Shown: positions 19,301 to 58,909 of the stretch, one piece after another | Layout of the letters: every line of letters starts with the position of its first letter | Position numbering within the stretch: the first letter of the stretch is position 1 | Assembly: GCA_017506865.1 (NCBI GenBank) | Contig: JAFCMP010000445.1 | Span: forward strand, 1,426,001-1,490,000 | From: Tribonema minus | Lineage: Eukaryota > Sar > Xanthophyceae > Tribonematales > Tribonemataceae | Reading direction: 5' to 3' | Length of the DNA stretch: 64,000 nt | Made by a program: the position numbers and the translations under genes | Notes under the pieces: generated by a model | Databases searched by the model: none | Told to the model about the DNA's origin: nothing | Seen by the model: the letters and a program-made list of their open reading frames with translations, nothing else

Positions 19301-22300
19301 ACCACCTGTTGAGAATGGCCGTTACATTACAGTTACATTCTCTTGATTCTCCTAGAAATTACCTTCTGTTTGTTGTTCTGGTCTGGCGCGGCGCCTACGC
19401 TGGCGCCTGTGGGCTGCCTGCGGCAGGTCTGTCTCTGCACTGCGTGTGCCTATTCCCAGGGTTGTGCGCCTGGTGCGCTTCTGTTGCTGCCCTAGGAGTG
19501 CTCATTTTGGCGACCTTCACGTCATCACTGGTTTTACCGCCGCAGTGCCGCGCGTACAGGATGTCTGGAACGCCGGCGTGGTGCTGTACGCGCTGCTGTG
19601 CCACCAGCTGCCCTTCAATTACATGCGTTGTTGCCTTTCAGGTGCTTCTCCTGATGCTCTAGGAATGCTCATTTCGTCGCCTCTCATGTCATCACTCGTT
19701 CCGCCACCGTTTATACGCGTTTTGCGCGCGCGCGCAGGACGTCTGGAGCGCCGGCGTTGTGCTCTATGCGCTGCTGTGCCACCAGCTGCCCTTCGAGATG
19801 GGGCACGGCAGCAACGGCTACCGCGCCATGTGCGCGCGCATAGAGGGCGGCATGTACACGCTGCCTGCGCACCTGCCGACGGACGCGCGCGACCTGCTGC
19901 AGCGCATGCTGACGGTGGACCCCATGCGGGTACGCGCGTGAACTTGTGAACTCCTCTTGTCCTCTAGTGCACCTGATGAAGTTACCTCCAGCGCATGCTC
20001 ACGGTGGACCCTATGAGGGTACGCGCGTGAACTCGTGGACTGCTCTCATGTACCATGATGAAGTTTTTTCTGAACTTGTGAACTCCTCGTGTACCTGATG
20101 AAGTTGCCTGCTGCAGCGCATGCTGACGGTGGACCCCATGCGGGTACGCGGTGTGGACTCGTGAACTGGTTGTGTACTGATGAAGTTGCCTGCTGCAGCG
20201 CATGCTCATGGTGGACCCCATGAGGGTACGCGCAGTGAACTCGTGAACTGTCGTGTTCTTTATGTATACTTGTGCCTGAGGTGCGGAATCCCTATGAATA
20301 CTGCAAGATATGCAGACTTTTGTGCCTCCGTGTACCTGATGAAGTTTACAAAACCCCAGTGGAGTCCGGCTGTGTGGCCTCGGTGCATGTGTGGCCTGTG
20401 TCGTACTGGCAGCAGTAGGTTGTGAACTTTCGTGTACTTTGCAGTATGTACTGCTGAATGAGATGTGCGTCGCTGAGGTGTGCACACAATTGGGAGATCA
20501 TGCGCAGCAGCGCTCAAGCCACTCTCTGCGTGAGATGCTGACAGCAGCGGTGACAAAGCTGCCACACACACATTTCAGTTTACGGGGAGCACCTGCAGCG
20601 TTTACCTTTGGCAGGAGTGAAAGACGTGCTGCAGCCTTGGCATATGTGATTAAGCTCTGTGAAGATAGCAGAGACTCGGGATTCTGCCATCCTAGTGGGG
20701 AAACTTTTGATTTTGACTTCATGTGAGCCTGAAGTAGCCTGCCGCTGCTGCTCATTCTGCTTTCGCAAGTAAGTGCACATGGTAAACAAAGGCAGCAACC
20801 TTCGGCCCACAACGGTCCTCTTTCTGGCTGCACCACTGCTCATCATCATAGGTAAAACAAGCACCAGCCATTCTAAACTCCCCCCCCCCCCCCCCCCCCC
20901 TGCACCCCATATGCAGCGCATAACAATCGCCGCCATCCGCCAGCACCCCTGGTTCACGCCCTCCATACCAGCCTACCTCGCGCTGTCGCCGACAGAGCTC
21001 GAGGCACAGGCAGCAGTGCTCAACCATGGCATCATCTCTGCCATGCTGGAGCTGCCGTTTGAGCCGCGCGCGACGCGGGCGCAGGTAGTGCACGCCATCA
21101 CTCCGCACGCGCTGCAGCAGCAGCAGCAGCAGCAGCCGCAGCAGCAGCGGCAGCAGCAGCGGCAGCAGCAGCAGCGGCAGCAGCAGCAGCGGCAGCAGCG
21201 ACAGCAGCCGCAGCAGCAGCAGCAGCAGCCACCACCGCCACAGCAGCAGCAGCAGCAACCGCCACAGCAGCAGCAGCAGCAGCAGCGGCAGCAGCGCTCA
21301 TCCCAGCAGCGGTCTGCACGGCTGCGCGTCGCGTACGAGCTGCTGGTCGGCGACAGGCACGCGGCGGAGCGGCTGCGGCGCTGCGCCGAGACGTGCCAGC
21401 GCTTGGCCAGCACGCCGCTCGTCTTCACACCCGCCAGCGCGGGAGGGGGTCTGTCGGCCAGGTGGGTGGGGGGACGTGTGTTGAGCGCTGACAGTGAGCG
21501 CCCAGTTGCAGCGCACTGCGGTCGGTACAGCACAGCTGCGCTGATGTGTGCTGATGTCGGTCGTTGTCCACATGGGTGGCAGGATGCACGGTGATTGGTG
21601 GAAGGCATTCAGTTTGACGGCTACCCACGCCTTGTCACCTAGAGCTCTACGATCTTTTGAATCGTTTCCATGTCATGTGTGCTGAGCGCTGATGGCGTCA
21701 GCGCCCGGCTGCGCGCGGTGCAAAGTGGCGTGGACACTATAGCTCCGCTGACGAGCGTCGGACCATGCGCATCATGACTGGAGGGACGACTTTACCAGTC
21801 GGGGTCTTGTTGCAATCATAGCCGTCATTGCCCCCTGGATTGATTGGCTGTCTATGACCAAACCTGAAACCATATGTGATCCAGCAACGACTGTACGCAG
21901 CACTGAAGATCAGTAGACGTTACAGCCTGCAATGAAAGTTGTGGCCGTCGCCGCAAGTGGAGTGGTGCCCCGCACCACAGCGCTCCGCACACACCAAGTG
22001 TCATGATGATCCACCTTCAACATTGAACATTTGACCCACTGCATCTGTGCACCCGCATTCGCGTTTGCTGCAGCGTCTCGAAGGTCAACCTGGTGGCGAT
22101 GAAGGACAAGCTGGCACAGGCGGCGCGCATCCTCCAGCAGGACATCGCGACGGCACCAGACACCGCGTCCGCCACCCCATCAACTTCAACACTGCGCAAC
22201 AAAATGCAACAAGTGACGCTGGCCGGTACAGCACACCCCTCAATGACATCCACACTTCGAGGGGCTGATTCCGGCGCAAGCACTCCTTACCCACCTGGGG

Positions 22301-33009: not shown

Positions 33010-33049
<40 letters not shown>

Positions 33050-36000
33050 GCATCACCAAAACGTAGCACGCGCGCCATGCTGAGCAGGCACAACACACTG
33101 CGCGCCCCTCCGGACATAACGTAACGTACCTGCAGCACGTGCGCCATGTACCCGCGCCGCCGCAGCCCCTGCGCCTCGCCCGCGGCGTTCCCCGCGACGG
33201 CGTCGCGGATGCGCGTGAGCAGGTGACAGTGCTCAAACAGGTGCCGCTGCAGCGCGCAGCGCGCGGGGGCGTCGCCCTGCAGCGCCGCCACGATCGCGCC
33301 CGCCGCCGCCTGCGTGCGGCAGCACACGGCACGTCGCAGTATGTCATCAGACGCTGCACGTAGCTGTGATGAATGTGAGAGCATGGCGCGTGTGACGCAG
33401 AAGCCACTGCAAGGCGCAGTTGCAATGGCTGCACAGCATCGACCCCGCATGGCCGCCTGCCTACGCCTGCCACCTAGGGTTAGGGTTAGGGTTAGGGGTA
33501 GCGCGGGACGCCACACGTCCGGGCGACTGTCACCGTGCGCGCATATGAACGGTCGAAAGAGAGTGTCGCAGAGGCAGACATGACTTAAGTAAGTGAAAGA
33601 CTGCTGCTGCACGATGCACGGCAATGCGGCGGGCGTCGCTGTCCTGATTCAGAACCGCTGGCAGCGCCGCCAGAACTGCAGGAGGCTGAAGCGATGGCCG
33701 CTACTCAACGAATCCGTAAGCGTCGAAGCCAACTGGTGAGTGCAGAGCGCACTGCCTGCAAACAAAGAGCGCCGTGCTTGTCGGCCGAGCATAGACAAAT
33801 CGTCCATGCAGCATTCACAGGAAATCAGCGGTCTCAGATAGTGACCGGCGTGGACGAAAATGCCGCGGCGGCGTGCGCTCGCCCCCCCCCCCCCCCCCCC
33901 ACCTACTTAACGCACCTGGTGCAGCAGCGAGCTCTGCTCGTGCGCGAAGAACGCGTCCAGCAGCGCCGCCAGCGCGCCCTCCGCCGCCGGCGCCGCCGCC
34001 GCCAACGCCGCGTCGACGCGCGCCGACCGCAGCGCCACCAGCGCGCGCACGAAGCGCGCGCACGCGAGCCGCGCCGGCCCCACGCGCCGCACGCGCTCGC
34101 CGCAGCACGTTTCCAGCTCGCCCGCGTCGACGCGCAGGCACGCGCACAGCCGCGGCAGCAGCGCCTCCGCCACGTCCTCCAGCGGCGCGGCGGCAGCGGC
34201 GGCGGCAACGGCGGCGCCGTCATCGTCGCTGCCGCTTTCGCTGCCGCTCGAGCTGGAGGTTTCGCTCTGCGGCGCCGCGGCGGCGGCGCGCGGCGGCAGC
34301 AGCAGCGGCGACGACAGGCGCACCGCGAGCGCCTGCAGCACGCGCAGCGCTGCCAGCGCGTACTCGGTTTCGGCGGCGCCGGGTGCGGCGCACAGGCCTG
34401 CGGCGGCGGTCTGCGCCAGCGCTCCGACAGTGGAGCTGCTGCACATGCCCTGCAGCAGCTTTGAGTCTGCCGGGCTGTACTCGACTATAGACAGTAGGAG
34501 CTGACGGGAGGGGGAGGGGGCACAGGGAGGCAATCGATGCATGTAGTGTTAGTTGAGCACTGTGACGCTTCAAACGCGCGTCGTCACGGAGAAATGGAAG
34601 TAACCCTGTACCCTTCAACCAGTCGTCACCTACTGCAGCTTCGCCCCCCAACGAGCCCCATCCCCATTTTGCACCAAGTATATGACATCAAGGACAAGTC
34701 ATTCGAATGACGTCACCGTAAGGACTCTAACGACTTGCAGCGACTCACATCGCAAGCCTCCCAGACGATGCACGATCACCTGCCTACTCAGCAGGCCACC
34801 AAATCCTGCGCTGTCACACAGCCAGCCTGTCCGCTCGCTGATTCATCACCCCCTGCCACGTGCTCCAACTCTCACCAACAAAGCTGTCATTAGCACAACT
34901 CACATCTGCTAAATGGCTGGGAACGTCAGCCGGTTCCGCCCCCTCCCCGCCCCCCCCCTCCACCCCTGGCTCCGCCGACTCGCCCCCCGCCGCCGCCGCC
35001 GCCGCTGCTGCCGCCGGCGCTGTCAGCGCTCCGACCAGCAGCTCCAGCATGGCAGGGTCTTGCGTCCACGTACACCGTACTGCGGCGGCTGCGTGTTCGT
35101 CGTGCGCGTCCGCCGCGTGGCCCTCCGATAACAGGTCACCGCCTGAAGAGCGCACGCGCATGGGCGAGCGAACGCGTATCGCAGGCGGTGAGGTGTAGGC
35201 GACGGGCAGCGCGACGGTTTGGAGGCCGACGCGTGATACGCGCACTGAACAAGCGCGCGTCGCGTTTAGCAGGGGGCGCGGCGAGCGGCTGGTGGTGCGC
35301 GTCGGAGTGTGCAAGTGGGCGTATGCGGTGCGAGACGCGACTGTTGCGTTGTTGAAATCGCGGCGCTCGCCTGGCGGAGCCGGATCTGACCAGCGGGGTA
35401 GGGACGCCGCACAAGTAGAGAGAGCGCGAGGTTCTGTTGCTGTTGGCCAACAAGTGCACGTCACCTTGCGCCACGGCCACGAACCTCCATTGCATCTCGC
35501 CAGCCTCTCCAGCTGTGCACGTCTACTTCAAGCCATGATTCAAGCCACGATGGCGACCAACTTCAAGCCGTGAACTCACACCTCAAGCGCAACGCTCAAA
35601 AAGGAAGTCAGGGAATGCGCGTCGTCATCGCTCACCGAGCGCGTGCACGGCGTCCGGCAGCAGCAGCCGCCGCAGGACCTGGACGACGCAGAAGCTGCCG
35701 CGACCAACTTCAAGCCACAATGGCGACCAACTTCAAACCACACCTCACACACATTCAAGCACATTGCTCACCGAGCACATGCACGGCGTCCGGCAGCAGC
35801 AGCCGCCGCAGGACCTGGACGACGGAGAAGCTGCCCGCGTGCGCGAGGAAGCGCACGAAGAGCGCCGCGCCGCCCGCGTTGACCGCGCCCACCGCCTGCG
35901 CGCGGCAGCGCTTGAGCAGCACCGCGAACGCCTCCTCGAGGTACCCCGCGTGCCGGTGGTCGAGGCCCCCCGGCGGCTGGTCGAGCATGCTCAGCAGCTG

Positions 36001-36609
36001 CGCGAGGTGCGATGGTTGTTCGGCGATCGCCGCGAGAACTCTGTCGACTTCGCAGCAGACGATCTCGCACGCCATGTAGGGGTACTTGTAGCGGCGCGCG
36101 TCGCTCGCGTCGGCTGGGATGGGGTCCGCGAGGTATGAGAGCAGCTCGGTGACGGTCTCGGGCCGGCAGAGGCTGCGCGCGTGACAGCGGCGGCGGCGGG
36201 GGGGGGGGGGGGGGGGGGGGAGCGCATTGATGAAATTCAAGAGCTGGGCACAAAACTTCAACAATAAATTTGTAGTGGCGCGCAAATTGCGTTCTAGACA
36301 GGCACAGACAAGTGAATGAGCTTGGCGTCCAGCCCTTTGACCTCCTGCAGCCACTCTGACACGGCTTCAAGAACAGCCACTGTTGAACGGCTTTAAAGAC
36401 AGGCGCTCACAAGTCGATGGGCTCAGCATATAGCCCCTTGACCTCCTACACTTTCTCTTGACAACAGCCACTCTTCGACGGCTTAAAAGAAAGGCACTCA
36501 CAAGTCGATGAGCTTGGCGTCCAGCCCCTTGACCTCCTGCAGCACCTCATCCTCCTCCAGCAGGTCGCCTAGCGTGAAGCTCTCCCGCTCCAGGATGTCG
36601 TGCACGGAG
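31687..36609 (-). CDS. SAPS-domain regulatory subunit of PP6/Sit4-type phosphatase
   Basis: Exons in phase on the minus strand: 36609-36502, 36172-35772, 35058-34904, 34500-33916, 33309-33130 and 32670-31687 (TAG). The N-terminal motif ERESFTLGDLLEEDEVLQEVKG, then RPETVTELLSYL, RYKYPYMACEIVCCEVDRVL and LFEHCHLLTRIRDAV...RRRGYMAHVL are family hallmarks (PPP6R/SAP155/SAP190). The acidic, glycine- and alanine-rich C-terminus has FDLTAMIDQF and FADFDAAF, as in the family. These proteins recruit PP6/Sit4 catalytic subunits in TOR, cell-cycle and DNA-damage signalling. About 803 residues are covered; a short 5' exon with the initiator methionine was not found (exon 36609 starts after an AG, in mid-codon). 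The introns carry a TTAGGG stretch, a CA microsatellite and several junction echoes. Confidence 0.88.
33011..33050. repeat. (CA)n microsatellite
   Basis: About 20 uninterrupted CA dinucleotides in the last intron of the PP6 subunit gene. Antisense ORFs over it encode only Cys-Val runs. Confidence 0.95.
33476..33501. repeat. Interstitial telomeric repeat, TTAGGG type (intron)
   Basis: Three to four perfect TTAGGG units on the plus strand within an intron of the PP6 subunit gene, the second telomere-like site in the window (compare 53700-54700). Confidence 0.9.
35636..35840 (-). repeat. Splice-junction echo of PP6-subunit exon 2 end plus donor
   Basis: The 3' end of exon 2 (35772-35838, read on the minus strand) and its GTGAGC donor are repeated, nearly unchanged over about 65 bp, at about 35640-35703. 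Short CTTCAAGCCA.AATGGCGACC motifs separate the copies. The copy keeps CTCG/GTGAGC intact. Confidence 0.85.
36193..36222 (-). repeat. Poly-G (poly-C on the coding strand) tract before an acceptor
   Basis: About 24 consecutive G on the plus strand, i.e. C on the coding strand, just upstream of the acceptor of PP6-subunit exon 2 (exon starts at 36172). Confidence 0.85.
36308..36560 (-). repeat. Splice-junction echoes of PP6-subunit exon 1 end (three copies)
   Basis: Copies near 36311, 36411 and 36500 share AAG(T/-)GATG(A/G)GCT, then CAGCCC(T/C)TTGACCTCCT. The one at 36502-36560 is the real exon (GLDAKLID). The middle copy is diverged. Each is preceded by a shared AAAGA.AGGC.CTCACAAG string that includes the donor. 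Confidence 0.75.
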
Positions 36610-37913
36610 CTGGCGGCGCGCAGCAGCACAGGGGGGGGTGAAAGCTCGTTGGAGGTCAGGATGTTGACAATGTACGCAACCTCAGCAGTAAGTGGGCGTG
36701 TCAACTTCAACTGTTAGCGCCAAGCTGAGACAGTGGTTAAAAAATCGCACTGTATCATGCTGACTGCTCAGCAGGATGTCGTGCATGGCGCTGGCGGCGC
36801 GCGGCAGTGCGGGGCGAGAGCGCGTTGGACTTCGGCATCAACAATATGCCCATGCCCAACAATAGGTGGGCGTGTCAGCTGCCGCCCAGCAGTAGAGCGC
36901 GTCGAAGGTGAGTGTGGTGATGCTCAGTCCGGCGTCAAAAAAATGCCTCTACCCACAGCAGAAAGTGGGTGCGTCAGCTTCCTGTGGCGGAAGCTGAAAA
37001 CACTGTAACATGCTCAGTGCTCAGCAGCATGTACTGGCACCGCTCCAAACTATCGCTGCTGCGCAGTCGGCCACATTTGAGTGACAGCACAGCATCACTT
37101 GCTCCGCCCCGGCGCAAACTGATCATGTGATGATGTGAATTCACGTGATGTGAATTCACGTCATCAGAAATCAGGCATGTTCGTCCGTGCCGAAGGCGTC
37201 TCTCAGGTGTTGAGGTACCACTGATGAAGCTGATGGGATTGCACATGGAGCACGGTCGCAGCAATTTCCGTACCAGTGTATGTCTGTTGGTATGCTGCAC
37301 ATGCACTTGGGATCAGTCGAAAAGGCGCCATGGTTTCATGGCGCAGGCATTGCACTTTCAGCATGCAGGCGTTGCTTTGTTGAAAGCTAACTTGCATGGA
37401 TTTGCAGCACACAGGGCGTGCCGGTCGTGAGTTTGACAGCGATCGCAGCGGCATAAGCGTTGCTGCCCTACAAGATAACTGCGGCCATTCACCTTGCAAA
37501 TGTGAAGCCAAAGTTGCCACTCCAGATGTCGCCTCCCAAGACCTGCGCGCACACGCAAGGGCATCGGTGACACCACCGCCAACACGCAGCTTGACAATGT
37601 GGGAGGCTGCCTCATTTAGGCCGTAGCCAACCACGCACCATGACTGAGCAAACGAGAGCGCAATGCTTGTCAAAAGTGCAACTGCGGCGTGGGCGCCCTT
37701 GCAGTCTCAAAATGCTTTTAGCGGCGGAACCTACAGCACCTGAGCGGCCGCGCTCCCGCCATCATCCATATCCCGCCCCAAAGGCCGTAGCTCGCCTGTG
37801 GTGTGGCCCAGCTGCCTAGGGTCTCCTGGATTGGATGGATTTTTTTTCTCAAGTGCTACAGTTGCAGTTTAGTGTTTGAAGTTTGCACAGGTTGGAGCGG
37901 CTTAGCGTGAGCG
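36610..37913. other. Divergent region between the PP6 subunit and JmjC genes
   Basis: This should contain the missing 5' exon of the PP6 subunit (-) and the promoter of the JmjC gene (+). A further echo of PP6-subunit exon 1 (AGGATGTCGTGCATGG and GCTGGCGGCGCGC) lies at 36774-36815, about 180 bp upstream of the real one. A poly-T run occurs at 37841-37848. Other ORFs are unsupported. Confidence 0.5.
37128..37166. promoter_or_regulatory. 39-bp near-perfect palindrome with two GTGAATTCAC cores
   Basis: Arms of 19 nt around a single central base; the arms differ by two transitions. Each arm contains the perfect 10-bp palindrome GTGAATTCAC, 15 bp apart. It lies between the divergent PP6-subunit and JmjC genes, so a bound dimeric regulator is possible; the function is inference. 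Confidence 0.45.
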
Positions 37914-40900
37914 ATGGACCACCCTTATGGCGTGCAGCCGATGGGGATGGCGCTGCTGTCGCATGACCCTCCCTGTCGCAATCCCGGCTTTGGCGCCATC
38001 GCGTGTCTCAAGGTTGGTAGCATGATCGGTGCTGCCTGGCTGGCTGGCTCCAGAGTCAACTGCTGCCTCCCAGATGCCATATCTACTTGTTGAATGTGAA
38101 TGGCCTGCATCGCATATGGTGCAGCCTTTGCGAGGAAGATGTACTGTCGATGCCCACACAGGATCTGCTTGAACCTCTGGAAGGAGCTCGACTAATAGCT
38201 GGCTGCTGCAAAGTGCCTGTCTGTTGCTCGTGTTACAATGGAGGAAGCACTGCCTCTCATTCGATTGTGGGCGAACCACAGCGCAGCTGGATCGACAGCA
38301 GCTGGGCTGTTGTAGTTGTAGATGTCGGCGCATACGCACATCGTCCTGCCTCGGGCCTGCTGCAGCACCCGGTCATTTTTGAGCTAGACACACATTGGAC
38401 TGCTGTTTTGTGTTGACATGGTACGCATTCAATGGTGCACCACAGTTGCACGTTTGTGTCATATTTGTAGATGTCAGCGCATACGCATATCGTCCTGCTT
38501 CGGGGCTGTGCCGCACCCATTCATCTGACCTGCTAGACCTAGATGGACTACTGTTTTGCATTTACATGGTACGCATTCAATGGTGCACCACAGTTGCACG
38601 TTTGTGTCACATGAGTCAATGTGGTGTAGGGTTATGGTAGGGTGGTGACGAATAGTCCAGCTTGTGCACACTCTGCTCTCATCACCCAAGCCTGCGAACC
38701 ATGCATTTGCTTGCTGATGATGCAGCTGACACATCACCTCACATCCTCGGGCCATCGTGTGGTAGTCTATCATCTTTTAACGCTCGTTTGTAGGCTACTG
38801 GCAAGTGTCGAGATCACGGCCACCAATCACCGCATAACTATCCGGAACTTCAACCCACGGCGCCACAACAGCACCCCCACTTGGCGGCAGTGCCACCATC
38901 CACACAGCAACCATGTCTCTGCCTAGTCAGCAGCCTCTTGGCGCACAAGCAGCGCCTTCGCAACCCGTCACTCTGACATCACACTCCAAACGCCGCCACT
39001 GCTGCCGCCCGCATGTTGCGTCTTCACAACCGGTCACTGCGACATCACCTATTGCCGCCCTCCCCTCAACGTAGGACGAGCTGCTGCTGGACCTCTGGGG
39101 CTACCTCGACGGCGCCGACCTCATGCGTGCCAACCAGCCACTCTGATATCACACGCCAAACATATGCTGCCGCCCGCATGTCGCGTCTTTGCAATCTGTC
39201 ACTGCGACATCAACAATCGCCGCCCCCCCCTCAACGCAGGACGAGCAGCTTCTCGACCTCTGGGGCTACCTCGACGGCGCCGACCTCGCGCGCGCCTCCG
39301 CCGTCAGCCGCGCCGTCTACGCCCTCTGCCATGCCGCGGACGACCTCTGGAAGGCGCTCGTGCTGCGCGCCATGTGGGCGCGCCCCCCCGGCGCGACGCT
39401 GCGCACGCGCGGCGGCACGTGGCGCGCGACCTTCATCTCCCTGGCGCTCGCGTCGCGCCGCCGCCGCGGCAGCAGCAGCAGCAGCGGCAGCAGCAGCAGC
39501 GGCAGCAGCAGCGGGGGCGCTCAGACAGAGCTGCCGCCGCCGCCGCTGCCGCCGCACCGCCCGCTGCGAGTGCGCGGCCTCTTCTCGGACGCGCTGTACC
39601 AGCCGCACCTGTGCGCGCGCGCGCGCGTGCGCCCGCGCTGGCTGTCGACAGAGACCGTGGAGCGCCGCCACGGGCTGAGCGCTGACGCGTTTCGCCGCGA
39701 CTTCGAGGCGCCGAACCGCCCCGTCATACTCACCGACGTCGTGCCGCGGTGGCGCGCGCACGGGACGTGGGGACGCTCCTACTTCAACAGCGCGCACGGG
39801 GATCTGTCCGTGCACGCCGGCGGCGTCGAGTTCAAGCTGCGGGACTACCTGGAGTATGCGGACGCGACGCGCGACGACATGCCGCTGTACGTCTTCGACA
39901 AGCGCTTCGCGGCCAAGGCGCCGGAGCTCGGGCGCGCGTTCGGTGTGCCGCCGCAGTTCGCGGTGAGCGCCGCTGCAGAGGGCCGTGTAGCGACGGGGTG
40001 TGGTTTGTAGTCAGAGTTGAGCTTGCGCCGCAGTTCGCGGTGAGCGCCGCTGCGGAGGGCCATGTAGCGACAGGGTGTGGTTTGTAGTCAGAGTTGAGCT
40101 TGGGGTCACATGTGACATGCCTTCATCGTGTAGTTGAAGTTCTCCGTGCCCTGTTCAACCGCCTGCTGTGCACGCTGGCGCGAGCATGGCCGCAAGCGGC
40201 GCTTCAGGTTTTGCATTCACATGGGGGTTGGTGCAGGCGGCGCACTGCGCAGCGCGTCTCACACGAAGGCGCACTCGTACTGGCTCCGCTCACCTCAACT
40301 CAGCGCTCGCCCCCCCCTCACTAACTTCAACTTTAATCCCCACTCACAGGATGACCTCTTCAGCCTCCTGGGTGAAAACCAACCCGACTACCGGTGGCTC
40401 ATCATGGGTGCCGCGCGGCTCCTCTTTCCATGTTGACCCCCCTCACTACCCTCACTCACTTCAACTTCAACTGTAACTCATCACGCAGGACGACCTCTTC
40501 AGCCTCCTGGGCGAAAACAGACCCGACTACAGATAACTCATCATGGGTCCCGCACGCTCCGCCTCCTCCTTCCGCGCCAACCCCCCCCTCACTAACTTCA
40601 ACTTCAACTTTAACCCCCCCCCCCAATGCAGGACGACCTCTTCGGCCTCCTGGGCGAAAACCGCCCCGACTACCGGTGGCTCATCATGGGTCCCGCGCGC
40701 TCGGGCTCCTCGTTCCACGTCGACCCCAACCAGACGTCGGCGTGGAACGCGGTTCTGGAGGGGCGGAAGAAGTGGGTGTTGTTCCCCCCCAACTGCCCCC
40801 CGCCGGGGGTACACCCTTCGAGCGACGGCATGGACCTGGTGGCACCCGTGTCGGTCATGGAGTGGTTTCTCAACTTTTACGACGCGGCGAAGCGGCAGCG

Positions 40901-42584
40901 CAAGTAAGTGCCGAAACCTCTCACTTAGTTATAGTGCTTCACGTTTTACGGCACGTTTTACGGCACGTCAGTTTTGTTCAATGCAAGGCTCGAATCTTCA
41001 GCGCAAGTAAGTGCCGAACCCTCGTATGAACAGGGCTTTCTCAAGTTCCATGTACCAAAAGTCAGGTACGTTTGATGCAAAAGTTGGAATTTGGTGGCGC
41101 GTGGTCGCGCCTATTTCGCGGGGGAGCGAAGCGCTCCGTCGGCGAAGAGGCTGCGCGAGCACGAAATTATCCCCAACTCATTGGGCGCGAGCGAGCATCT
41201 ATCCCCAACTTTTCAGTTCAGACCTAGCAAATGGTAACCTCATCAACCCTACAGTAGTCCATGGCAATGGGGGCAGCACCTGGCGCCATGTCCACCGCCG
41301 CCTGTCCTGCATCTGCTCGCTAATTTGGCGACATATGCCTCTTGCTGGTTACGCAAAGCACCAATTGAACTGGTTCAGGTTCGGGACCCTGTAGTTTAAA
41401 TGTCCTTCGTAGTTCAAGTGTCAGTGTGGTCAGAGAAGCTCTCGTGGCACACTGTCCCCAGGGTGTGTCAAGGCGTGCTTTCATACTGTATGTATTTCTA
41501 CAAGTGACCGGCATATCGGGAGGCTGGCAGCACTCAGTGCCACTGATCTATTTGAATGTTCCCGCGACAGTGCAAGCTGAGTTTTGTGACACTCTTCTTC
41601 ATGTCATGATGCCGCTAACAACCCTCGCTGCCCACCACCATCAATAGGCCGCATGACGAGGAGCGATGCGTTGCTCTTGCCACTGTTGCCGTTTCTCAAA
41701 ATTCAACTTGTGCCGTGCCTTCGAGCTGACGCCGCACTCGCCTCCCTCACTTGCCCCCCCCCCTTTCCCCCCCCCCCCCACAGTAGCGGCATGCTGGAGT
41801 GCGTCGTCAGCACCGTTGTTGTTGTTCACCCCTCCTCAATGTTCAACTTGTAATCTGCCTTCAAGCTGACTCACCTCCCCTCACATTCCCCCCCCCCCCA
41901 TCCCCCCGTGACAGCAGAGGCATGCTGGAGTGCGTCGTGAGCGCCGGCGAGGTCATCTTCATTGTTGCTCCTCAATACTTCGAAGTATTCAAGTTACGAC
42001 ACCCCTTCGACCTGACTCGCCTCCCCACACTTGCCCCCCCCCCTGCCCCCCGCCCCCCCCCCCCCCGCAACAGCAGCGGCATGCTGGAGTGCGTCGTGAG
42101 CGCCGGCGAGGTCGTCTTCGTGCCGCGCGGCTGGTGGCACTGCGTCCTCAACCTCGACTTCACGGTCGCCATCACGCAGAACTTTGTGAGCCGCGTCAAC
42201 CTCGCGCCAGTGCTCAGCTTCCTGCGCCGCCGTCCGGACAACGTCTCCGGGCTGCCGCCGGCGCTGCGGCCGCGCCTGCACGCCGACTTTGTGGCAGCGC
42301 TCAGAGAGAGGGCGCCTGCGTACGTCGACAGGAGCGTGATAGAGGCCGAGGAGGCTGCGCTAGCTGCTGCCAAGGCAGTCAGTAGCGGCGACAGCAGCGG
42401 CGGCGGCAGCGGCGGCGGCGACAGCGGCGGCAGCGGCGGCACTAGTGGTAGCGGCGGCACAAGAGGTTGCGGCGGAAGTGGCGGTAGCGGCGGCGATAGC
42501 GGTAGACCTGCTAGTGGCGTTATAGGCAAGAGGCACTGCGGAGCACAGGCGGCGCAGTTGTTCTTCTTTTCTTTCGACCTTTAG
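37914..42584 (+). CDS. F-box/JmjC-domain oxygenase (JMJD6/JMJ21-like)
   Basis: Four phase-consistent exons: 37914-38012, 39240-39962, 40632-40903 and 42074-42584 (TAG), 534 residues. The ATG at 37914 has a good context (GCGATGG), and exon 1 ends AAG/GTTGGT in phase 0. An F-box ([21 protein letters not shown]) spans about 36-85. The JmjC domain contains [36 protein letters not shown] with the iron ligands His303 and Asp305, [10 protein letters not shown], and [14 protein letters not shown] with the third ligand His387. The C-terminus is a serine/glycine linker. Family knowledge: Fe(II)/2-oxoglutarate-dependent hydroxylase or demethylase acting on protein (or histone) lysine or arginine, and F-box members suggest a link to SCF ubiquitin ligase. 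The F-box + JmjC order is that of plant JMJ21. All metal ligands are present. At every exon junction after exon 1 the introns carry partial copies. Confidence 0.9.
38318..38612 (+). repeat. Tandem pair with a 149-bp period in JmjC intron 1
   Basis: Two copies share GTAGATGTC(G/A)GCGCATACGC, CATCGTCCTGC and ACATGGTACGCATTCAATGG followed by TGCACCACAGTTGCACG; the last motif starts at about 38415 and 38564. Both ORFs across them are shadows. Confidence 0.85.
39074..39300 (+). repeat. Splice-junction echo: start of JmjC exon 2
   Basis: 39074-39130 repeats the acceptor and first 57 bp of exon 2 ([16 protein letters not shown]), with its upstream CACTGCGACATCA...CCTCAACG(C/T)AG context. The real exon starts at 39240, 166 bp later. 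The copy then diverges and ends without a donor. Confidence 0.9.
39948..40093 (+). repeat. Splice-junction echo: JmjC exon 2 end plus donor
   Basis: CCGCAGTTCGCG/GTGAGCG and about 58 bp of following intron (GAGGGCC(G/A)TGTAGCGAC and GGTGTGGTTTGTAGTCAGAG) occur twice, at 39951 and 40030. The first is the real junction. Both donors are intact. Confidence 0.95.
40322..40700 (+). repeat. Splice-junction echo: start of JmjC exon 3, three copies
   Basis: Acceptor plus exon start occur at 40350, 40489 and 40632 (spacing 139 and 143 bp), each preceded by CACT(A)AC..TTCAACTT(T/C)AA.. and a C-rich tract ending CAG. The first copy reads [17 protein letters not shown] and then hits a TGA after the shifted CCATGT; the second reaches a stop after NRPDYR. 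The third is the real exon. The first two would be poison exons if used. Confidence 0.95.
40894..41015 (+). repeat. Splice-junction echo: JmjC exon 3 end plus donor
   Basis: CAGCGCAAGTAAGTGCCGAA occurs at 40896-40915 (real donor, GTAAGT at 40904) and at 40999-41018, with the following CCTC conserved. A small inverted pair AAAAGTTGG/CCAACTTTT brackets 41079-41213 further on, possibly a tiny MITE. Confidence 0.85.
41730..42110 (+). repeat. Splice-junction echo: start of JmjC exon 4, three copies
   Basis: A polypyrimidine (largely poly-C) tract, AG, and AG(A/C)GGCATGCTGGAGTGCG occur near 41785, 41914 and 42074. The first keeps about 30 bp of the exon, the second about 50 bp (through GGCGAGGTC), the third is the real exon with GWWH. 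Intron sequence before each (GCC..C..GCTGAC..C.CTC or similar) is also shared. Confidence 0.9.
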
Positions 42585-45500: not shown

Positions 45501-45737
45501 ACACGAGACCACCACCAGGACTACACAACAGCGATCGGCGCAATGCGCACGCCGAACCCCCCCCAACCCCCCCTTCGCGTTTCTTTGCTGCACGCACCGC
45601 AAACACACACAAATCAAACCCATGGTGTGGGCGATAGATAACTGCTGCCGCCACACACACGCCCCGTCTGTGCCGTGTGCTCTCGCCTGTGTGAGCGCTG
45701 CCATCGTACCCCCCTCCCCCCCCCCCCCCCCCCCCTC
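42553..45737 (+). repeat. Three near-identical 1.06-kb tandem units at the JmjC 3' end
   Basis: Units begin with the last nine codons of the JmjC gene (GCAGTTGTTCTTCTTTTC through its stop) and end in a C-rich tract: about 42553-43614, 43615-44678 and 44679-45737. They differ by only a few bases (for example A/G at 42906 versus 43967, A/G near 43393) and by C-tract length. The C tract followed by CGCAG before units 2 and 3 looks like a good splice acceptor, which would add LFFFSFDL and a stop as an alternative terminal exon. A 130-codon ORF present in every copy has no recognisable domain. This is a very recent amplification or an assembly-supported array. Confidence 0.95.
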
Positions 45738-47005: not shown

Positions 47006-50000
47006 TCACTCATCCTCGTACTGGCTGCGCCCCGCGAGCACGTCTGCGGCGGCGGTGGCGCTCCACTGCTGCTCGAGCATGGACGCCTTGAGGCGCAGGT
47101 GGTCGCCGGGAACGGTGCCGAGGATGGTCCGGATCTCCTCCGCGGCGGTCGCGCGGCGCAGCATGACGCCCTGGCGGGTGGGGGGCGGCATATTTGTTTC
47201 TCCATTAGTTTGGTTTGCAATGAAGACAACAATAAAGACAAAAGTATGGCTTTATTTGCCTGCGCACAACCCTTCCAACACATCGTTATGATCAACTTAT
47301 ACATGAATTGTGCGTGTTGAAGTATCACAAGTAAATCGGAAGAAAAGAAGAACGACACGATGCCCTGGTGGGTGGGGGGCAGCGCATGTATTTCTGCATT
47401 AGTTTGGTTCGCTATGAAGACGAGTGTATGCATCCTTCTAGGTAGGGAGTGCACTTGTAGGCGCACACTAGACAGCAACCGCGGTATACCACTGTACCCA
47501 TGAATGAGCGCTCCAGTGAATTGGTTGCAATGGAGACTGTTGCTGAGCATTGTCATTATCAACATTATCGTGCAACTAAGCTGAGCGATGCCACACATAC
47601 CGCATTGCAGCTGAGCAATGCCACACAGACTGCAGCTGAGCAATGTCACGCAGACTGCAGCTGAGCAAGTGAGCCATGTCACATGTGACTGCAGTCACGC
47701 AACTGCATTTGAGCACTATCATTCAGACTGCAGCTGTGAGAGATGCTGTGGCGCGCGCTCGCCTTGGCAGTCTAAGCGGGCTCAATGACACACAGCTTGA
47801 GTGCACATGTAGCCACAAATCTGATGCCAAGTGGCGAACTGTACCCATCAGCACTCGAGTGAATGGCGGCAACGGAGATTGTTGAGCACTGTCGTGCAAC
47901 TCACTGCGATTGAGCACTGTCGTGCAGCTCACCTTGGCAATCTGGGCGGGCTCGATCACGCGCGGCTTGTCGCTGTTGCCGCGCACCTTAGGGTTGATCA
48001 TCATCTGCACAAGACAAGGCGTGCATGCGTGAGGCGCTTGCTTAGTGAGCGCGTTGGGGAGTCACATGGCACTTGAAGGTGGCGGCAAGGGAGTGCGCCA
48101 GACATGTGTAACTTCAAGTTTTGAGAGCATGGCACCACAAGCCAGCCAGCCAACCCAAAGAAACGAGCCAGCACACCTAAGTGACTCTGCACACCATCTG
48201 CAGCACACAAAGCTAGCGACATTGAGCGCAAGTTCAGCATGAACCACCACCATGACCCACTCCGGCCCACCATGCCAAGCCCATGCAAAGTGAGTGACTC
48301 AATGACTTGACTCAAGCTCACGACTCACCATGGGACCGTTGAGCATGGACTCGAGTAGCGCATTTCCCTTGAGCCCCTTGCCGCCCTTAAGCATGAAGCG
48401 CTCCAGCCAGTTCTGGTGGTAGCGGTGGCCGCTCTGGCGCAGCTCAGCCTGCGCGTTTGCCAAAAAAAAGTGCATGTTGCTGTTTGAGCATCTCAGCCCC
48501 ATAGTGACAGATGAAGTTGCCTTTCCATGCACAAGGCAAAACTGCGTTTAAATTACGAAGGCTGCAAAGCTACCACAACTGCACGGCACGTGTCTGTGCA
48601 CTCAGGCATCCAGTGCATGACCAGTTCTGGTGGTAGCGGTGGCCGCTCGTACGCAGCTCAGCATGCACGTTTGCCGATAAATGTTGTTATTGTTGGACAC
48701 ATATTAGCACTGGCTGTCGCTGATGAAACTGGCTGTCGACGCAGACAAGGGCACATGGCAAATGCTGCAAGTCACCACAACACAGCATTGCACGTGTCTA
48801 TGCATGCAGGCCTTCAGTGCCACACCTCAAGCCCATAGTGTATACCTAAAGTCCCAATTATTACTTCAAGTGGCGACGCACCTCATAACGCCGCACCGCG
48901 ACCCTGGTCACCATGGCCAGGAGCTCCCTGGGGGGGGGGGGGAGGGGGCACAGCCGTGGGCAAGAAAAGTACAGGAGAGGGCACTGGTGAGTCCACTGAG
49001 GGCATGCAGCAGCAGTCAGCTACAGGCAGTACAAACACCAGGGGTCGCAACATTGCTTAAAAAGGCACCATCATGGGGAGTGACCTGTGCCAGGTGCTGA
49101 ACAGAATGTTTTCACGAAAAATACACATTCCATTGGCGCACACACACACGACCGGCGGCGGCTCAATCTCGTCATTACCTGCGATGCAGGCAGCCATCAC
49201 AACGGTATGGCATCTGCCAGGCGCTTTTGAGAGCCACACAGGGAACTTCAATCTCAACTGCAAACACAGAAATATGATTTAATCCGCGCACTAGCCGCCC
49301 ACTCCCCCTTCCCACACCTGTAGTTCCTGTTGCGGTAGGGCGCGAAGTCCCCATACCGATCGTGGTCAAAGACGAGCTGGCGGCTCGAGTCGGCCCTGCC
49401 TTAAAAGTTCAACTTCCAACAGCACAAATGAAATGACGACGCCCCGCCCCGTACCTGTAGTTCTTGCCGCGGTAGGGCAACTTGGTGCCATATGGGTCAT
49501 GGTCAAAGATAAGCTGCTTTAGAACTTCACCTTCAACTGCACAACTGCAACGACGATGCCACGCACGCTAGTCCTGGCCCCTCACCTGTAGTTCTTGCCG
49601 CGGTACGGCGACTTGGTCCCGTACGGGTCGTGGTCAAAAACGAGCTGGCGGCTCGAGTCGGCCTGCTTCGCGTCCATGGACAGCGTGTCGACGTGGTGTC
49701 GCAGCAGCTCTGCATTCTCCGTTTCGACGAGCTCCAGGTCTTTGATCCACTCCTGCGCCAGCTGCTCGCGCACCGTCATGATGCGCTTGGCGATCTGGAA
49801 CGGCTCGATCAGGACGGTGTACTCCATGGCGTGGCGGGTGCTGCGCGCACGGTACAGAGAATAAGTTTGGTGAATTACTGTGTACTGTGCAGAGGCTATG
49901 TACTGTATAGAGGGTGTACTTGAGTGCTTAGCTCCATCAGGACGGTGTACTCCATGGCGTGGCGGGTGCTGCGCACGCGGTACAGAAAAGGAGTATGATG

Positions 50001-51265
50001 AACTACTGTGTTCTGTACGGAAAGTGTACTTGAGTGCTTAGCGATCTCCAGCCGCTCAGTCAAAACAGTGTACTCCCTAACAAGGAAATTGGTGCGCACG
50101 TGCACAGGCGGGGAGTGCTGTGAACTACAGTGCACTGCTGTGTTCTCTATGCGCGACGTGAACCAGCACTCTGCACTGGGCAGCGTCGGACAGCTTGAGC
50201 AGCAGCACTTTTTTACGTCCACTGTTGCCTTGCATTCACTACAAGTGGACAACCACGAGAGATGTGGAGGCGACCCGATGAATGAGAAGAAAAGAATGGC
50301 CGACGGATTCAGCACAGCACACGACCTGGCATCGCCGCTGCTGCGCAGATTGGATGGAAGGTTGGGGTCAGGCGTGCATAGTGTGCACATAGGAGGTGAC
50401 AGGTGCGGTGTTGCAGAGGTTGAGGGTGCACAAAGCAACGGATTGGTGGCTGGACATCACAGCGTCAGCCAAAACTTCAACCTTAACCAGTACATGTGGA
50501 CAACCGGCCAGCTGTGCATCAGAGGGAACCTTTTTTCAGGTCAGACTCACGCAAGCGCACCTCAATTAAATTTGAATTCACAGGGTATTGAACTCATAGG
50601 GTAAAATATACATGGAAGAAGAGCGCACTTGCCAATGTGCGCAGCGGCAGCAGGCACTCACTCTGATAGGAAGGGGTTGTTGCCAGACCCGCCTTTGGGC
50701 CGCTGCGCCATTTTTCGCACCGTGACCTCCTCCGGCTCTGTGCGCATCAGCGATCCAAGGAAGTGATCCCAGCCGACCTTCACACAGAGATACATAATAA
50801 TGAAAGTCTTAGAGAAGGCAGTTCAACTGCCGTTGTGGCGCGAAAATTTCGATGGGACGGTGGAGTCTCGCCCTCCGTCCTTCTGCGATGCATGGGTTGT
50901 AAACAACCAGAACTAGTGAAAGACTCTAAAACATCAGACAATTCAATGATGTTACAAGTATTGGCCGCCCTGTTCCAATCATCGTTCCTTCCCCTGACTT
51001 TTCAGAGCAATCCGCCTTTCGACGCTCTGCGAGGCGCTGGGAACAGTTTAGCATTGTAGATGTGAGGCACCAGGCGAACCTGTCCCACGTTGTGCCCAGC
51101 TTCCTCAAATTCCTTCAGCCACCGAGGCTGCAGCTCGTCTCTGAACTCCATCCAATAGTATTGCACGCTTGCGGATGCTTGAACCGCAAGCAGGTTTTTG
51201 ACGGACCGCTCCATGTGCGCTGCTTCGGCATCCGATTCCGACTCCCCGTCTGACCAGCTGGACAT
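47006..51265 (-). CDS. Uncharacterised seven-exon protein with two IEP..IAK segments
   Basis: Exons 51265-51071, 50777-50662, 49840-49586, 48927-48882, 48448-48329, 48004-47933 and 47170-47006 (TGA), all GT-AG and in phase, 322 residues. The start ATG (51265) opens an acidic N-terminus (MSSWSDGESESDAEAAH). The body is helical, with WDHFLGSLMRTEPEEVTVRKM, GGSGNNPFLS, then a module IEPFQIAKRIMTVREQLAQEW; a second related module (VIEPAQIAK, then RRATAAEEIRTIL) ends the protein, so it may have arisen by internal duplication. Between them lies a short helical region (YRELLAMVTRVAVRRYEAEL, then YHQNWLERFM). No signal or membrane segment is seen. I cannot name the family; it has the feel of a conserved algal/plant protein. 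Exon phases closing over seven exons make the model strong. Confidence 0.75.
47357..47430 (-). repeat. Splice-junction echo of exon 7 acceptor (seven-exon gene)
   Basis: GATGCCCTGG(T/C)GGGTGGGGGGC and the following intron CATTAGTTTGGTT(C/T)GC occur at 47360-47425 and at the real acceptor, 47163-47227. Only a few exon bases are included. Confidence 0.8.
48605..48672 (-). repeat. Splice-junction echo of exon 5 start (seven-exon gene)
   Basis: CCAGTTCTGGTGGTAGCGGT and the following GGCCGCTC..CGCAGCTCAGC..GC.CGTTTGCC repeat the beginning of exon 48448-48329 about 210 bp upstream on the coding strand, with the acceptor region included but CTGGCG replaced by GTACG. Confidence 0.85.
49318..49655 (-). 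repeat. Splice-junction echoes of exon 3 end plus donor, three copies
   Basis: Copies at about 49318-49400, 49455-49515 and 49585-49655 share (A)CCTGTAGTTC.TG, CGGTA(G/C)GGC and TGGTCAAA(G/A)A(C/T)(G/A)AGCTG. On the coding strand each ends in CTACAG/GT. The 49586 copy is the real exon end. Confidence 0.9.
49800..50100 (-). repeat. Splice-junction echoes of exon 3 start, two upstream copies
   Basis: AGGACGGTGTACTCCATGGC, GTGGCGGGTGCTGCGC, CGGTACAGA and an intron stretch (GGTGTACTTGAGTGCTTAGC) recur: real junction at 49840, strong copy at 49935-49990, faded copy at about 50050-50110. So exon 3 has echoes on both sides. Confidence 0.85.
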
Positions 51266-56169: not shown

Positions 56170-57000
56170 CTGCGGTTGGGGTTACGGTTGCAGGGTCAGG
56201 GGCGGGGTCATGACAGGCATGAAGTGAGTGTTGAGCGGTGAGGAAGGGTGAGGTACGCACAGCAACGGCTGGATCATCGCTCTGATGCGCGAGCCACACC
56301 ACCAAAACGAGGCAGAGGTGACCTCCCCACATGCTCTGCTGAAATGGTTTTTGTCGGATGCAAGCTGCGCTGAGGGCGTGCAGGCAAGGAATACACTTCG
56401 TGGCTGTAACCGCTGGTGTGGGTGCATGCGGGGGCGCATGTGAAGTTGGTGAAATGGTAGTTCATCAATTTGCACACTTTAGAATTCCCATGGCGCAGCG
56501 CCAATCACTAATCTGTGAGATGAGAGCACAGTCAGGTGCAGATACGCCACGACGAAACGTGAGTTGCTGTCACAGGCATAGGTGAAATTGTGGAGACGCG
56601 TATCTACATGGGCCAGGGGTAGATGAGGCATTGCACCGATGTGACCAATGGATCATGGCGATTTAGTCACATACGGGTATGAGTGCTTTTCATTAAGTCT
56701 CGCTTAGGCATTGATCGCTTAGGCATTGTTCGTCTCAAGATGTATGCACTAAGCTTGCCACCTGATATTAGGGTCTACATACTTACTACTGATATCCGAA
56801 GTCTACGTCTGCCTTGTGACGATCACTTCACTTGCGCTTTTTGTTGGAGTTCACTCAGAACATGACACAGCCCAGATGACCAGATAATTGGTGGCAAGCT
56901 GAAAAAGTAAGCCTGCATGTAGCCTGTGACAGTGCGACTCAATGCTCATTCGAGCACACCGTGGTAGTATTGTAGTAGTAAATCACTAACGGGGGCATAC

Positions 57001-58909
57001 CTGATTTCGCCTGTAGAGGACTGCATCAGCGTATTCCGCCAGGTACTGTGCAGGGGGGACAGCAGCATGACAGAGGCAGAGACATGGTGTGAGTGCAAAC
57101 ACAACATGTCACTCCGCGCCGCGCCTGCATACGGCAGACCTGATTAAGCTGTCCGTTGCATGAGCGTTGGTGACATATGTGTTATGGGGAGATTGAATTG
57201 GAGATGTCGCTTTTTTGAAGCGTAGAAACCATGGTCATAGCACGGCGCACCACAATGAGCAGCAGAATTGGTGCGCACGAGAATAGCAGAGACTTGACCT
57301 CATGTTCATACTCACAATCAAAATCAAACCCATAATTACACCTGCAACCAGCAGTTGATGATTTCAATGGCCATGATGCTAAGAGCATCACCGGCACGAA
57401 ATGATGTACACTCTGACAGAATCAAAGCCTCGGACAACTGCGCTCACAGTGAAAACTGCGCTGTGTGAACGTTGTTAGCTGCCAGGATCTGGGCGTGCTG
57501 CGCCAACACTTCAACTCCCCATACGGTCGTACTTCCAGCCCAGTGACCACACTGCAAGGCAGCCAGATGTCTCTACGCTCAGTGTACCAACCCCTTTCTC
57601 AATGCTCTTCAGCGCACTGCCCCCCGTCACCTGCAGCGTGAAGGCCGTGTTGTAGTACATATGACTTTGAAGTGCGTGTGGTGGAGGGTATGTCCTGCAG
57701 CGGAGCGTCACACACCTGCAGCGTGAAAGCCGTGTTGTAGTGCTGCAGCGGAGAGTCACACGCGAACCCCGCCGCGCACACGCTGATGACGTAGGGCTTG
57801 GGGTACTCATCACGCAGCGCCTGCAGCAGGGCGCAGCCGAGGCCGGAGCCTGTGCCCCCAGAGGAGCTGTGCACCATGCACAGCGTATCCAGCCATCTGC
57901 TTAGGCGGTCCAAAGAATAGCAGGAACTGTCGTTGGCACAAGGTGGTTGAAGAGCAGAGGGGTTCTGAGCAACTGTAATCGGCGCTGCTATGATGATGGG
58001 TGTGCGCAGCGCGGAAGCCGCAGCGGCAGCGGCAGCGGTTGAGGTTGTGGGGATAGGGCGCAAGAGCAGCTGTCGAGATGTCATCAGTCGCTGCGTTGGT
58101 TCGACGGCTACTATGCCAAACATATGCAACGGCAGTGCAAGCATCGCTGCTTGCAGGCGCGTTCCCAACAAGGATCATGCTCACAACTGATTTGGGGCAT
58201 CATTGCCCGTGCCAAACATCAAAGCCACGAGCCACTTGGTACTGCAACGAGCTCTGCATTATTGGTGCACTCTTTGTTGCAGAATCGACGTGATGTGTTA
58301 CCTTGAGCGTTCAGCTTCTCGCCTAATTGCGTCCATTGCGCTGTCAAGCAGCTCATCCTCTGGGCAACACCAGCACACGCATCGCCATCAACATCGTATC
58401 AGAACCCAAGAGTCGACATGTCGTGTATGCACCTGCGTGTAGTCAACACCGCTGTTGAACATGCTGCTCGGAAGAAGCATGTTCAGAACAGAACTGCTAT
58501 TTCATTAGTTTGTGAGTCTCGTTTTTGTGCTTTGTGATTCTGCTTCTATGACAAGCATACATGCTGCACACATTTTTCAAACAACAATCTGCATTCCTGA
58601 AGTTAACACTCTCTGTTTTCCCAGCGACTGACCTGTGAAGCCGGAAGCCCAATTGTTACCACAGCCTCCCCCTTTTCCATGCACCAAATTGCTCGGCCGC
58701 ACGCAGGCGACTGTTGCTTTGAACCCCTGCAGAGGCTTTGGTTCGCTGTCCACGCACACCGCTCTGGCACAGCCATCCTCGCAGAACCAACTGCCACTGT
58801 GAGGTCTGCTTTTTTCACCAGGAGATTTGCAGCCATTTGCATCCTGGATTGCCAGGCCCCAGAGCTCCTGAGCTATCTGATTGCCTGCCTGTCCCACGCT
58901 AATTATCAT
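57001..58909 (-). CDS. Delta-like tubulin, N-terminal half (3' exons not found)
   Basis: Exons 58909-58633, 58359-58302, 57896-57716 and 57045-57001 close in phase. ATG 58909 opens MIISVGQAGNQIAQELWG (tubulin nucleotide-binding loop 1). Then CVDSEPKPLQGF (the DxEPK form is typical of delta/zeta/eta rather than alpha/beta), GCGNNWASGF, AMDAIRREAERSR, the tubulin signature GGTGSGLG, DEYPKPYVISV, PLQHYNTAFTLQ and YLAEYADAVLYRR. About 192 residues; a full tubulin needs about 250 more. I found no further exons between 57000 and 56170, so the gene may be truncated or its remaining exons unrecognisable. The activation and C-terminal domains are missing. Delta tubulin works in basal-body triplet microtubules. 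An echo of exon 3 end lies at 57628-57656. Confidence 0.75.
57628..57740 (-). repeat. Splice-junction echo of tubulin exon 3 end plus donor
   Basis: CACCTGCAGCGTGAA(A/G)GC and CGTGTTGTAGT occur at the real junction (57715-57742) and again at 57630-57656. On the coding strand the copy reads YNTAFTLQ followed by a GTGACG donor. Confidence 0.85.

What the first reader, a model, noticed from the sequence alone, without database searches (positions are those of the whole stretch)
19465..57740. Splice-junction echoes: exon-boundary segments repeatedly copied into adjacent introns of at least six genes
In the kinase, PP6 subunit, JmjC gene, seven-exon gene, tubulin and the tentative 52-56 kb gene, 30-90 bp pieces spanning a real exon-intron border recur one to six times in the neighbouring intron, at spacings of about 80-210 bp. 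They include acceptor copies (exon starts) and donor copies (exon ends), nearly all with the AG or GT intact, often with stops or frameshifts beyond. Both strands and unrelated genes are affected, so this is a property of the genome and not of one gene. Possible meanings: a replication or repair process that duplicates junctions; decoy sites for regulated splicing; raw material for exon birth. I know of no described process that targets junctions like this, though local tandem duplication is of course known.
Basis: partly seen in the sequence, partly recalled or inferred. Interest (0 to 1): 0.95.

Follow-up and report, generated by a model that had tools for sequence, protein, structure and literature searches.

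The report
Introns carrying copies of exon edges
In the yellow-green alga Tribonema minus about a third of the introns examined contain nearby copies of their own exon border; most look like decaying leftovers of short tandem duplications, but they occur at exon borders several times more often than chance predicts.

Summary
In the window, 21 copies of 15 splice borders lie in five genes; the sixth, tentative gene was not confirmed. The genome is Tribonema minus (100% FtsZ match). An independent set, chosen by protein family, repeats it: 25 of 73 introns in 22 genes carry a junction echo. Exon-edge 60-mers recur in the adjacent intron in 34 of 145 cases, exon-interior ones in 0 of 77. Of 45 local duplication clusters 30 touch a border (16 donor, 14 acceptor); simulation expects 13-14 (P below 1e-6, odds ratio about 4.7). 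Echoes decay neutrally: mismatches at codon positions 1/2/3 are 7.9/8.1/16.7%, spacing ignores frame, 47 of 54 keep GT/AG against roughly 75% expected. Decoy or exon-birth function is not supported. The rate rises with GC3 (2 of 46 to 17 of 50 junctions). Best reading: border-biased birth of roughly 85-195 bp tandem duplications that are tolerated because the outer copy falls into the intron. Unexplained: in 20 of 54 echoes similarity ends within 15 bp past the border, too abruptly for simple tandem duplication. The cause of the border bias is inferred.

The parts
19477..19794 (+). AMPK/SNF1-alpha kinase: acceptor echo (echo exon start 19560) upstream of the real exon start 19738; pair 19477-19616 / 19644-19794
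19893..20259 (+). Kinase: real donor (GT at 19930) and three donor echoes with GT at 20019, 20144 and 20226
35626..35835 (-).
36296..36543 (-). PP6-subunit-like gene: real donor (GT 36501) and two echoes (36410, 36309)
36591..36880 (-). PP6-subunit-like gene: acceptor-side echo (36772-36880) of exon start region (36591-36706), spacing 181; exact border not placed
38961..39296 (+). F-box/JmjC gene: acceptor echo (exon-start copy 39075) of real exon start 39240
39949..40102 (+). JmjC gene: 77-bp tandem duplication across the donor (real GT 39963, echo GT 40040), 96% identity
40283..40727 (+). JmjC gene: two acceptor echoes (exon-start copies 40350 and 40489) upstream of real exon start 40632
40888..41023 (+). 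JmjC gene: donor (GT 40904) and echo (GT 41007), spacing 103
41695..42119 (+). JmjC gene: two acceptor echoes (exon-start motif at 41788 and 41919) upstream of the real one (42078)
47162..47421 (-). Seven-exon gene: acceptor echo (motif 47370) of exon start (motif 47176)
48407..48681 (-). Seven-exon gene: acceptor-side echo (48621-48681) of exon start (48407-48467)
49311..49663 (-). Seven-exon gene: real donor (GT 49585) and two donor echoes (GT 49454 and 49317)
49803..50016 (-). Seven-exon gene: acceptor-side echo (49931-50016) of exon start (49803-49888), spacing 128
57628..57741 (-). Tubulin-like gene: donor (GT 57715) and 29-bp donor echo (GT 57630), spacing 85

Best explanation
Short tandem duplications (nearest spacing 85-195 bp, one 447) arise in Tribonema minus genes preferentially across exon-intron borders. 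After such a duplication the gene reads A-[exon end + intron start] x2-B (donor) or the mirror image (acceptor); splicing keeps using the copy next to the intact exon, so the other copy becomes part of the intron, is free of constraint, decays, and may be re-duplicated into an array. Shown: tandem geometry for most echoes (34 of 54 align on both sides of the border), neutral decay of the exon half, donor/acceptor symmetry, excess at borders over simulated uniform duplication, association with longer introns and with GC-rich coding sequence. Inferred: that the excess reflects a higher birth rate at borders (for example at the GC step or nucleosome edge between exon and intron, or through transcription- or splicing-linked paired nicks with fill-in), and that splicing ignores the echoes.
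For: Independent set: 25 of 73 introns with junction echoes; 30 of 45 clusters at borders; uniform expectation 9.5, P 4.6e-12; with a 3-fold detection advantage 18.7, P 3.0e-4. Forward simulation with exons frozen at codon positions 1 and 2 gives border:other 235:563 and 192:438 for two indel settings, observed 30:15, P 2.7e-7 and 6.2e-7. Neutrality: in the 32 of 54 echoes without exon-side gaps, mismatches are 36/458, 37/456, 76/454 at codon positions 1/2/3; spacing modulo 3 over all 54 is 19/19/16; in-frame stops 7 of 54. Exon side 87%, intron side 76% identical over aligned parts. Median intron 966 bp with echo (25), 536 bp with no duplication (39), P 7e-5. Border clusters per junction 2/46, 11/50, 17/50 for GC3 below 0.80, 0.80-0.88, above 0.88.
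Against: In 20 of 54 echoes (11 of the 30 nearest ones) no more than 15 intron columns align, although the exon half is no more diverged than in the rest (85.5 against 87.5%); tandem duplication at the measured age and indel rate predicts about 0-7%. So these copies either ended near the border, or intron halves turn over faster, or exon halves are refreshed by gene conversion; I cannot tell which. Larger deletions may erase interior duplicates faster than border ones (not simulated). Among young pairs (best pair at least 88% identical, at least 40 bp) the lean is weak: 7 border, 5 other, P about 0.04. The stop-codon control is inconclusive. The 73 introns come from 22 genes, some of them paralogues, so clusters are not fully independent.
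Confidence: 0.55

Rival explanations
1. Ordinary uniform tandem duplication plus filters: exon-internal duplications are purged, border copies stay recognisable longer and are shielded from deletion, so borders only look enriched.
For: Local duplications occur away from borders too; the exon half decays at half the rate; 0 exon-internal pairs in 105 exons, 22,224 bp; young pairs lean to borders only weakly (7:5).
Against: Simulation including the slower exon decay predicts 29-31% at borders, 67% observed; analytic 2- and 3-fold advantages still give P 1.2e-6 and 3.0e-4. Deletion shielding was not simulated.
Confidence: 0.27
2. Exonic DNA in general is a duplication hot spot (GC-rich, nucleosome-dense); only duplications that poke out of an exon survive, so they appear as border echoes.
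For: Rate rises with GC3; in the first 67-intron set donor echo exons were slightly more GC-rich (0.66 against 0.62, P 0.03).
Against: Units reach less far into the exon than uniform placement predicts (median 47.5 against 63-65 bp, P 0.03-0.05; 0 of 30 above 95 bp against 20-23% simulated), the opposite of an exon-centred hot spot unless long exon parts are removed by selection. Stop codons of single-exon kinases: 0 of 17 spanned, but only 8 of 17 are GC-rich, so inconclusive.
Confidence: 0.22
3. Border-ended copying: at least part of the echoes are not tandem duplications but short copies whose end lies at the splice site itself.
For: 20 of 54 echoes lose similarity within 15 columns past the border, 7 of them the only echo of their border, 5 of them at least 92% identical on the exon side.
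Against: 34 of 54 align well into the intron, and clean tandem cases exist. Short donor echoes do not continue into the next exon, nor acceptor echoes into the previous one, so they are not mRNA-derived (no case reached 13 of 25).
Confidence: 0.15
4. Functional decoys: extra splice sites kept by selection to regulate splicing or as raw material for exons.
For: GT/AG intact in 47 of 54 and in 19 of the 20 echoes whose intron side does not align.
Against: About 0.75 is expected from 87% identity alone; the anchoring of the alignments favours matching bases at the border; exon halves decay neutrally in both subsets, spacing ignores frame, gaps and stops accumulate.
Confidence: 0.05
5. Relics of intron gain by tandem duplication of coding sequence (Rogers model).
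For: Tandem duplication is the shared mutation type.
Against: In that model copies of the downstream exon lie at the intron's 5' end and of the upstream exon at its 3' end; here nearest echoes sit 85-195 bp (one 447) from their own border in introns of 307-1788 bp, and most carry pre-existing intron sequence.
Confidence: 0.04
6. Assembly artefact.
For: Reads were not available.
Against: Copies differ by varying amounts (exon side 71-100% identical), vary in spacing and copy number, occur on many contigs, and echoes even register as separate profile matches.
Confidence: 0.02

Closest known systems
Junction-crossing tandem duplication in the potato RdRp gene (PMC4974935)
   Same: A tandem duplication crosses an intron-exon border and copies acceptor, polypyrimidine tract and exon start.
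   Different: One event, spliced as a new intron; here it is found in many genes, on both borders, in arrays, and the copy apparently falls into the old intron.
Intron gain by tandem duplication of coding sequence (PMC2891723, passages seen; Rogers model as described in PMC4974935)
   Same: Local tandem duplication involving splice signals.
   Different: Duplicates exon-internal AGGT/AGGY and creates an intron; here existing borders are duplicated.
Introner elements (recalled)
   Same: Repeated sequence in many introns.
   Different: Introners share one sequence among genes; these copies are private to each border.
Minisatellite / local tandem repeats
   Same: Head-to-tail copies, growth into small arrays.
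   Different: Units lie across exon borders, mostly 85-195 bp, few copies.

Membership tests
Local tandem duplication | Head-to-tail copies including flanking sequence on both sides of the border | tested here: inconclusive
   More than 15 intron columns align in 34 of 54 echoes; clean examples with aligned length about equal to spacing. In 20 of 54 the intron side hardly aligns, more than simulated decay allows.
Local tandem duplication | Position independent of gene structure (once exon-internal events are removed) | tested here: not met
   30 of 45 clusters at borders against 29-31% expected.
Intron gain by tandem duplication (Rogers model) | Downstream-exon copy at intron 5' end, upstream-exon copy at 3' end | tested here: not met
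   Nearest echoes sit near their own border, 85-195 bp away, one at 447.
Introner elements | Same sequence in introns of many genes | tested here: not met
   Exon-edge segments: 33 hits in 9,953 pairs with introns of other genes, 34 of 145 in the own intron. This tests exon edges, not whole introns.
Functional pseudo-exon/decoy | Coding-type or exon-side sequence constraint on the copy | tested here: not met
   Codon-position, frame, gap and stop data.
Functional pseudo-exon/decoy | Constraint on the splice dinucleotide itself | tested here: inconclusive
   47 of 54 intact overall, 19 of 20 where the intron side does not align.
Functional pseudo-exon/decoy | Use in transcripts | not testable with these tools
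Junction-crossing duplication as in potato RdRp | Unit crosses an exon-intron border | tested here: met
   (34 of 54 with clear intron flank).

The most novel reading that the evidence does not exclude
Exon-intron borders are mutational hot spots: a transcription-, splicing- or nucleosome-linked process repeatedly copies about one nucleosome's length of DNA across both edges of exons, in part with copies that end at the splice site itself, and this 'border stutter' is a main engine of intron growth in Tribonema minus.
Probability: 0.4. Interest if true: 0.82.

Novelty: new variant of a known kind. Interest (0 to 1): 0.62.

Why it matters
Why introns differ so much in length, and whether gene structure itself shapes mutation, are open questions. 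A genome in which a third of the sampled introns carry datable copies of their own borders gives a natural record of intron change, suggests how tolerant a spliceosome can be of nearby duplicate splice sites, and lets border-biased mutation be tested directly by comparing alleles. It also warns gene-prediction and read-mapping programs: echoes look like exons and even score as separate domain matches.

Tried and rejected
Error found and mended: the first kinase profile was built from 24 match stretches, 10 of which I had translated from the wrong strand. rest on it for 10 of their 67 introns. With the corrected profile the set became 73 introns in 22 genes and the analyses were repeated; the first set had given 24 of 67 introns, 29 of 43 clusters, simulation P about 1e-7, so the conclusion did not change. 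Figures still taken from the first set are marked so.

Stop-codon control: a first version used a faulty choice of reading frame and is withdrawn. Corrected: of 30 kinase loci, 17 have a match reaching profile position 244 or beyond of 263, a complete frame and are not near-copies of each other; 0 of 17 have a duplication over the stop, 8 of 17 have GC3 above 0.8; inconclusive. In 2 of the 30 (L023, L030) a duplication spans the end of the frame, but there the match stops short (198 and 219 of 263), so this end may be a splice border.

Also: GC skew around borders no difference (first set). Donor-only model (first-come splicing tolerates donor but not acceptor copies) rejected, 16 donor and 14 acceptor clusters. 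Haplotype comparison on contigs C90/C179 (95% identical over 3.8 kb) could not be fetched. The AAA table added nothing. A first alignment display aligned overlapping stretches to themselves and was discarded. A first exon-part comparison set true simulated against measured lengths and was replaced. Exon-interior segments hit introns of other genes in 22 of 5,316 pairs, the same chance level as edges.

Rows left out: 24 loci were fetched for modelling (L039-L062); L041 and L045 were not modelled (L045 is rich in echoes, L041 poor). 73 of 77 adjacent exon pairs could be spliced; pairs with profile gaps above 22 were skipped. Less certain borders: kin_C312, first introns of kin_C479, kin_C135 (GC donor) and tub_C124. 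The kinase loci are 8 of 131 match rows, picked for split exons.

Literature: of five answered searches three concerned the phenomenon directly, asked for it in brown algae, for the Tribonema genome; no listed title or abstract opening describes a genome-wide border-echo phenomenon. Some searches failed, 92 met the cap and a DOI look-up failed, so absence from print is not established.
Full report
What is there. The window is C445:1426001-1490000 of a 158-Mb, 554-contig assembly. An FtsZ protein from contig C10 matches a Tribonema minus protein at 100%, on a contig of the same length, so the genome is that of this xanthophyte alga. Self-comparison of the window gives 54 local pairs. A clean example is the 77-bp tandem duplication at 39949-40102, 96% identical, whose unit holds 14 bp of exon, the GT and the start of the intron.

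Independent set. A first set (67 introns) used a kinase profile that, as I found at the end, was partly built from the wrong strand; the corrected profile gives 73 introns of 77 exon pairs in 22 genes, two with GC donors, the rest GT-AG. All figures below are from the corrected set unless marked. 25 of 73 introns carry at least one echo; of 45 clusters of local duplications 16 are at donors, 14 at acceptors, 15 elsewhere; counting clusters that reach at least 12 bp into an exon gives 35 of 45. No exon-internal pair was found in 105 exons. A further family, TCP-1, seen only as a table, shows the same thing: partial repeat matches that share an exon-edge profile coordinate at C51:21979 and 22169, C5:353415 and C135:208473.

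Is it more than local duplication plus bias? Under uniform placement with exon-internal events removed, 9.5 of 45 clusters should touch a border; 30 do (P 4.6e-12). Giving border events a 2- or 3-fold detection advantage raises the expectation to 15.0 or 18.7 (P 1.2e-6, 3.0e-4). A forward simulation in the real genes (uniform birth, ages up to 25% per lineage, exons free only at third positions, two indel settings, same detection pipeline) yields 235:563 and 192:438 border:other, against 30:15 (P 2.7e-7 and 6.2e-7). Young pairs lean the same way only weakly, 7:5 (P about 0.04). I did not simulate loss of interior DNA by larger deletions, which could shield border copies.

Are the copies functional? 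There are 54 echoes (31 donor, 23 acceptor). In the 32 without gaps on the exon side, mismatches between echo and exon are 7.9, 8.1 and 16.7% at codon positions 1, 2, 3. That is what results if the echo changes freely at all positions while the exon changes only at synonymous ones. Spacing modulo 3 is flat (19/19/16), 22 of 54 have gaps on the exon side, 7 of 54 an in-frame stop. GT is intact in 28 of 31 and AG in 19 of 23, compared with roughly 75% expected from 87% identity. I conclude neutral decay of the exon half. Whether echo sites are used in RNA could not be tested.

What does not fit. Over aligned parts the exon side is 87% and the intron side 76% identical, as expected when only one of the two exon halves is free to change. 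But in 20 of 54 echoes no more than 15 intron columns align at all. Simulated decay of a tandem copy gives 0-7% such cases at ages of 0.08-0.12 with indel settings of 0.1-0.3 per substitution (the exon-side gaps suggest about 0.1); only an indel rate equal to the substitution rate would give 17-62%. The short cases are not older on the exon side (85.5 against 87.5%), 5 are at least 92% identical there, 7 are single echoes, and 19 of 20 keep GT/AG. They do not continue into the neighbouring exon as an mRNA copy would. Copies that end near the splice site, rapid intron turnover, or gene conversion of the exon half are possible; this is open.

Anatomy. Nearest spacing is 85-195 bp except one of 447; the exon part is 24-93 bp, median 47.5, where the simulation gives 63-65 with 20-23% above 95 bp (P 0.03-0.05; 0 of 30 above 95). 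Either break points lie close to the border, or copies with long exon parts, which might be spliced as exons, are removed. Introns with echoes are longer (median 966 against 536 bp, P 7e-5); either echoes lengthen introns or long introns tolerate them.

Heterogeneity. Genes with GC3 below 0.80 have 2 border clusters in 46 junctions, the others 11 in 50 and 17 in 50; per gene, Spearman 0.44, P 0.04. Two HSP70 paralogues show the range: C190 has 4 border clusters in 4 introns, C522 none in 4. This suggests a link with exon GC, expression or the GC step at the border. Stop codons of single-exon kinases could separate border from general exon effects, but the corrected control (0 of 17, 8 of them GC-rich) is too small.

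Mechanism. Shown: tandem geometry in most cases, neutrality of the exon half, symmetry of donors and acceptors, border excess, association with GC3 and intron length. Inferred: births are favoured at borders, perhaps through staggered nicks with fill-in at nucleosome or R-loop edges (a general route to short tandem duplications, recalled, not from a call), and splicing ignores the echo. The best-supported part is neutral decay of local copies; the part most in need of a test is the birth bias.

Relation to known things. A published potato case (PMC4974935; abstract and Results and Discussion read) describes one tandem duplication across an acceptor border that produced a new intron; the same paper mentions an 83-bp duplication inside an intron. 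Drosophila cases (PMC2891723; passages seen) concern duplication within coding exons. The present case differs in scale, in affecting both borders, and in apparently adding to introns rather than creating them. My literature searches were few and several failed, so novelty in print is not established.

Noticed in passing
42553-45740: Three tandem copies of a 1,061-bp unit, 100% identical in BLAST, just downstream of the JmjC gene: very recent triplication or an assembly question.
   Followed up: no
53957-54006: Interstitial telomere-like array, CCCTAA x 8.3, inside a long contig.
   Followed up: no
1975-2130 and 7421-7776: Two arrays of a related 65-bp unit about 5.4 kb apart.
   Followed up: no
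6272-6949: 108-bp (36-codon) tandem array inside a long minus-strand open frame (5990-7177).
   Followed up: no
contigs C90 and C179 (L015, L017; also L027, L038): Parallel contigs 95% identical over 3.8 kb with matching kinase and HSP70 hits over about 450 kb: probably strongly diverged haplotypes.
   Followed up: partly
L039-L062: Frequency of border echoes rises with gene GC3 (2/46, 11/50, 17/50 junctions).
   Followed up: partly
L058 (C190) and L059 (C522): HSP70 paralogues with matching exons: one has longer introns rich in echoes, the other short introns with none.
   Followed up: partly
20 of 54 echoes in L039-L062: Similarity between echo and source ends within 15 columns past the splice border although the exon half is well preserved.
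   Followed up: partly
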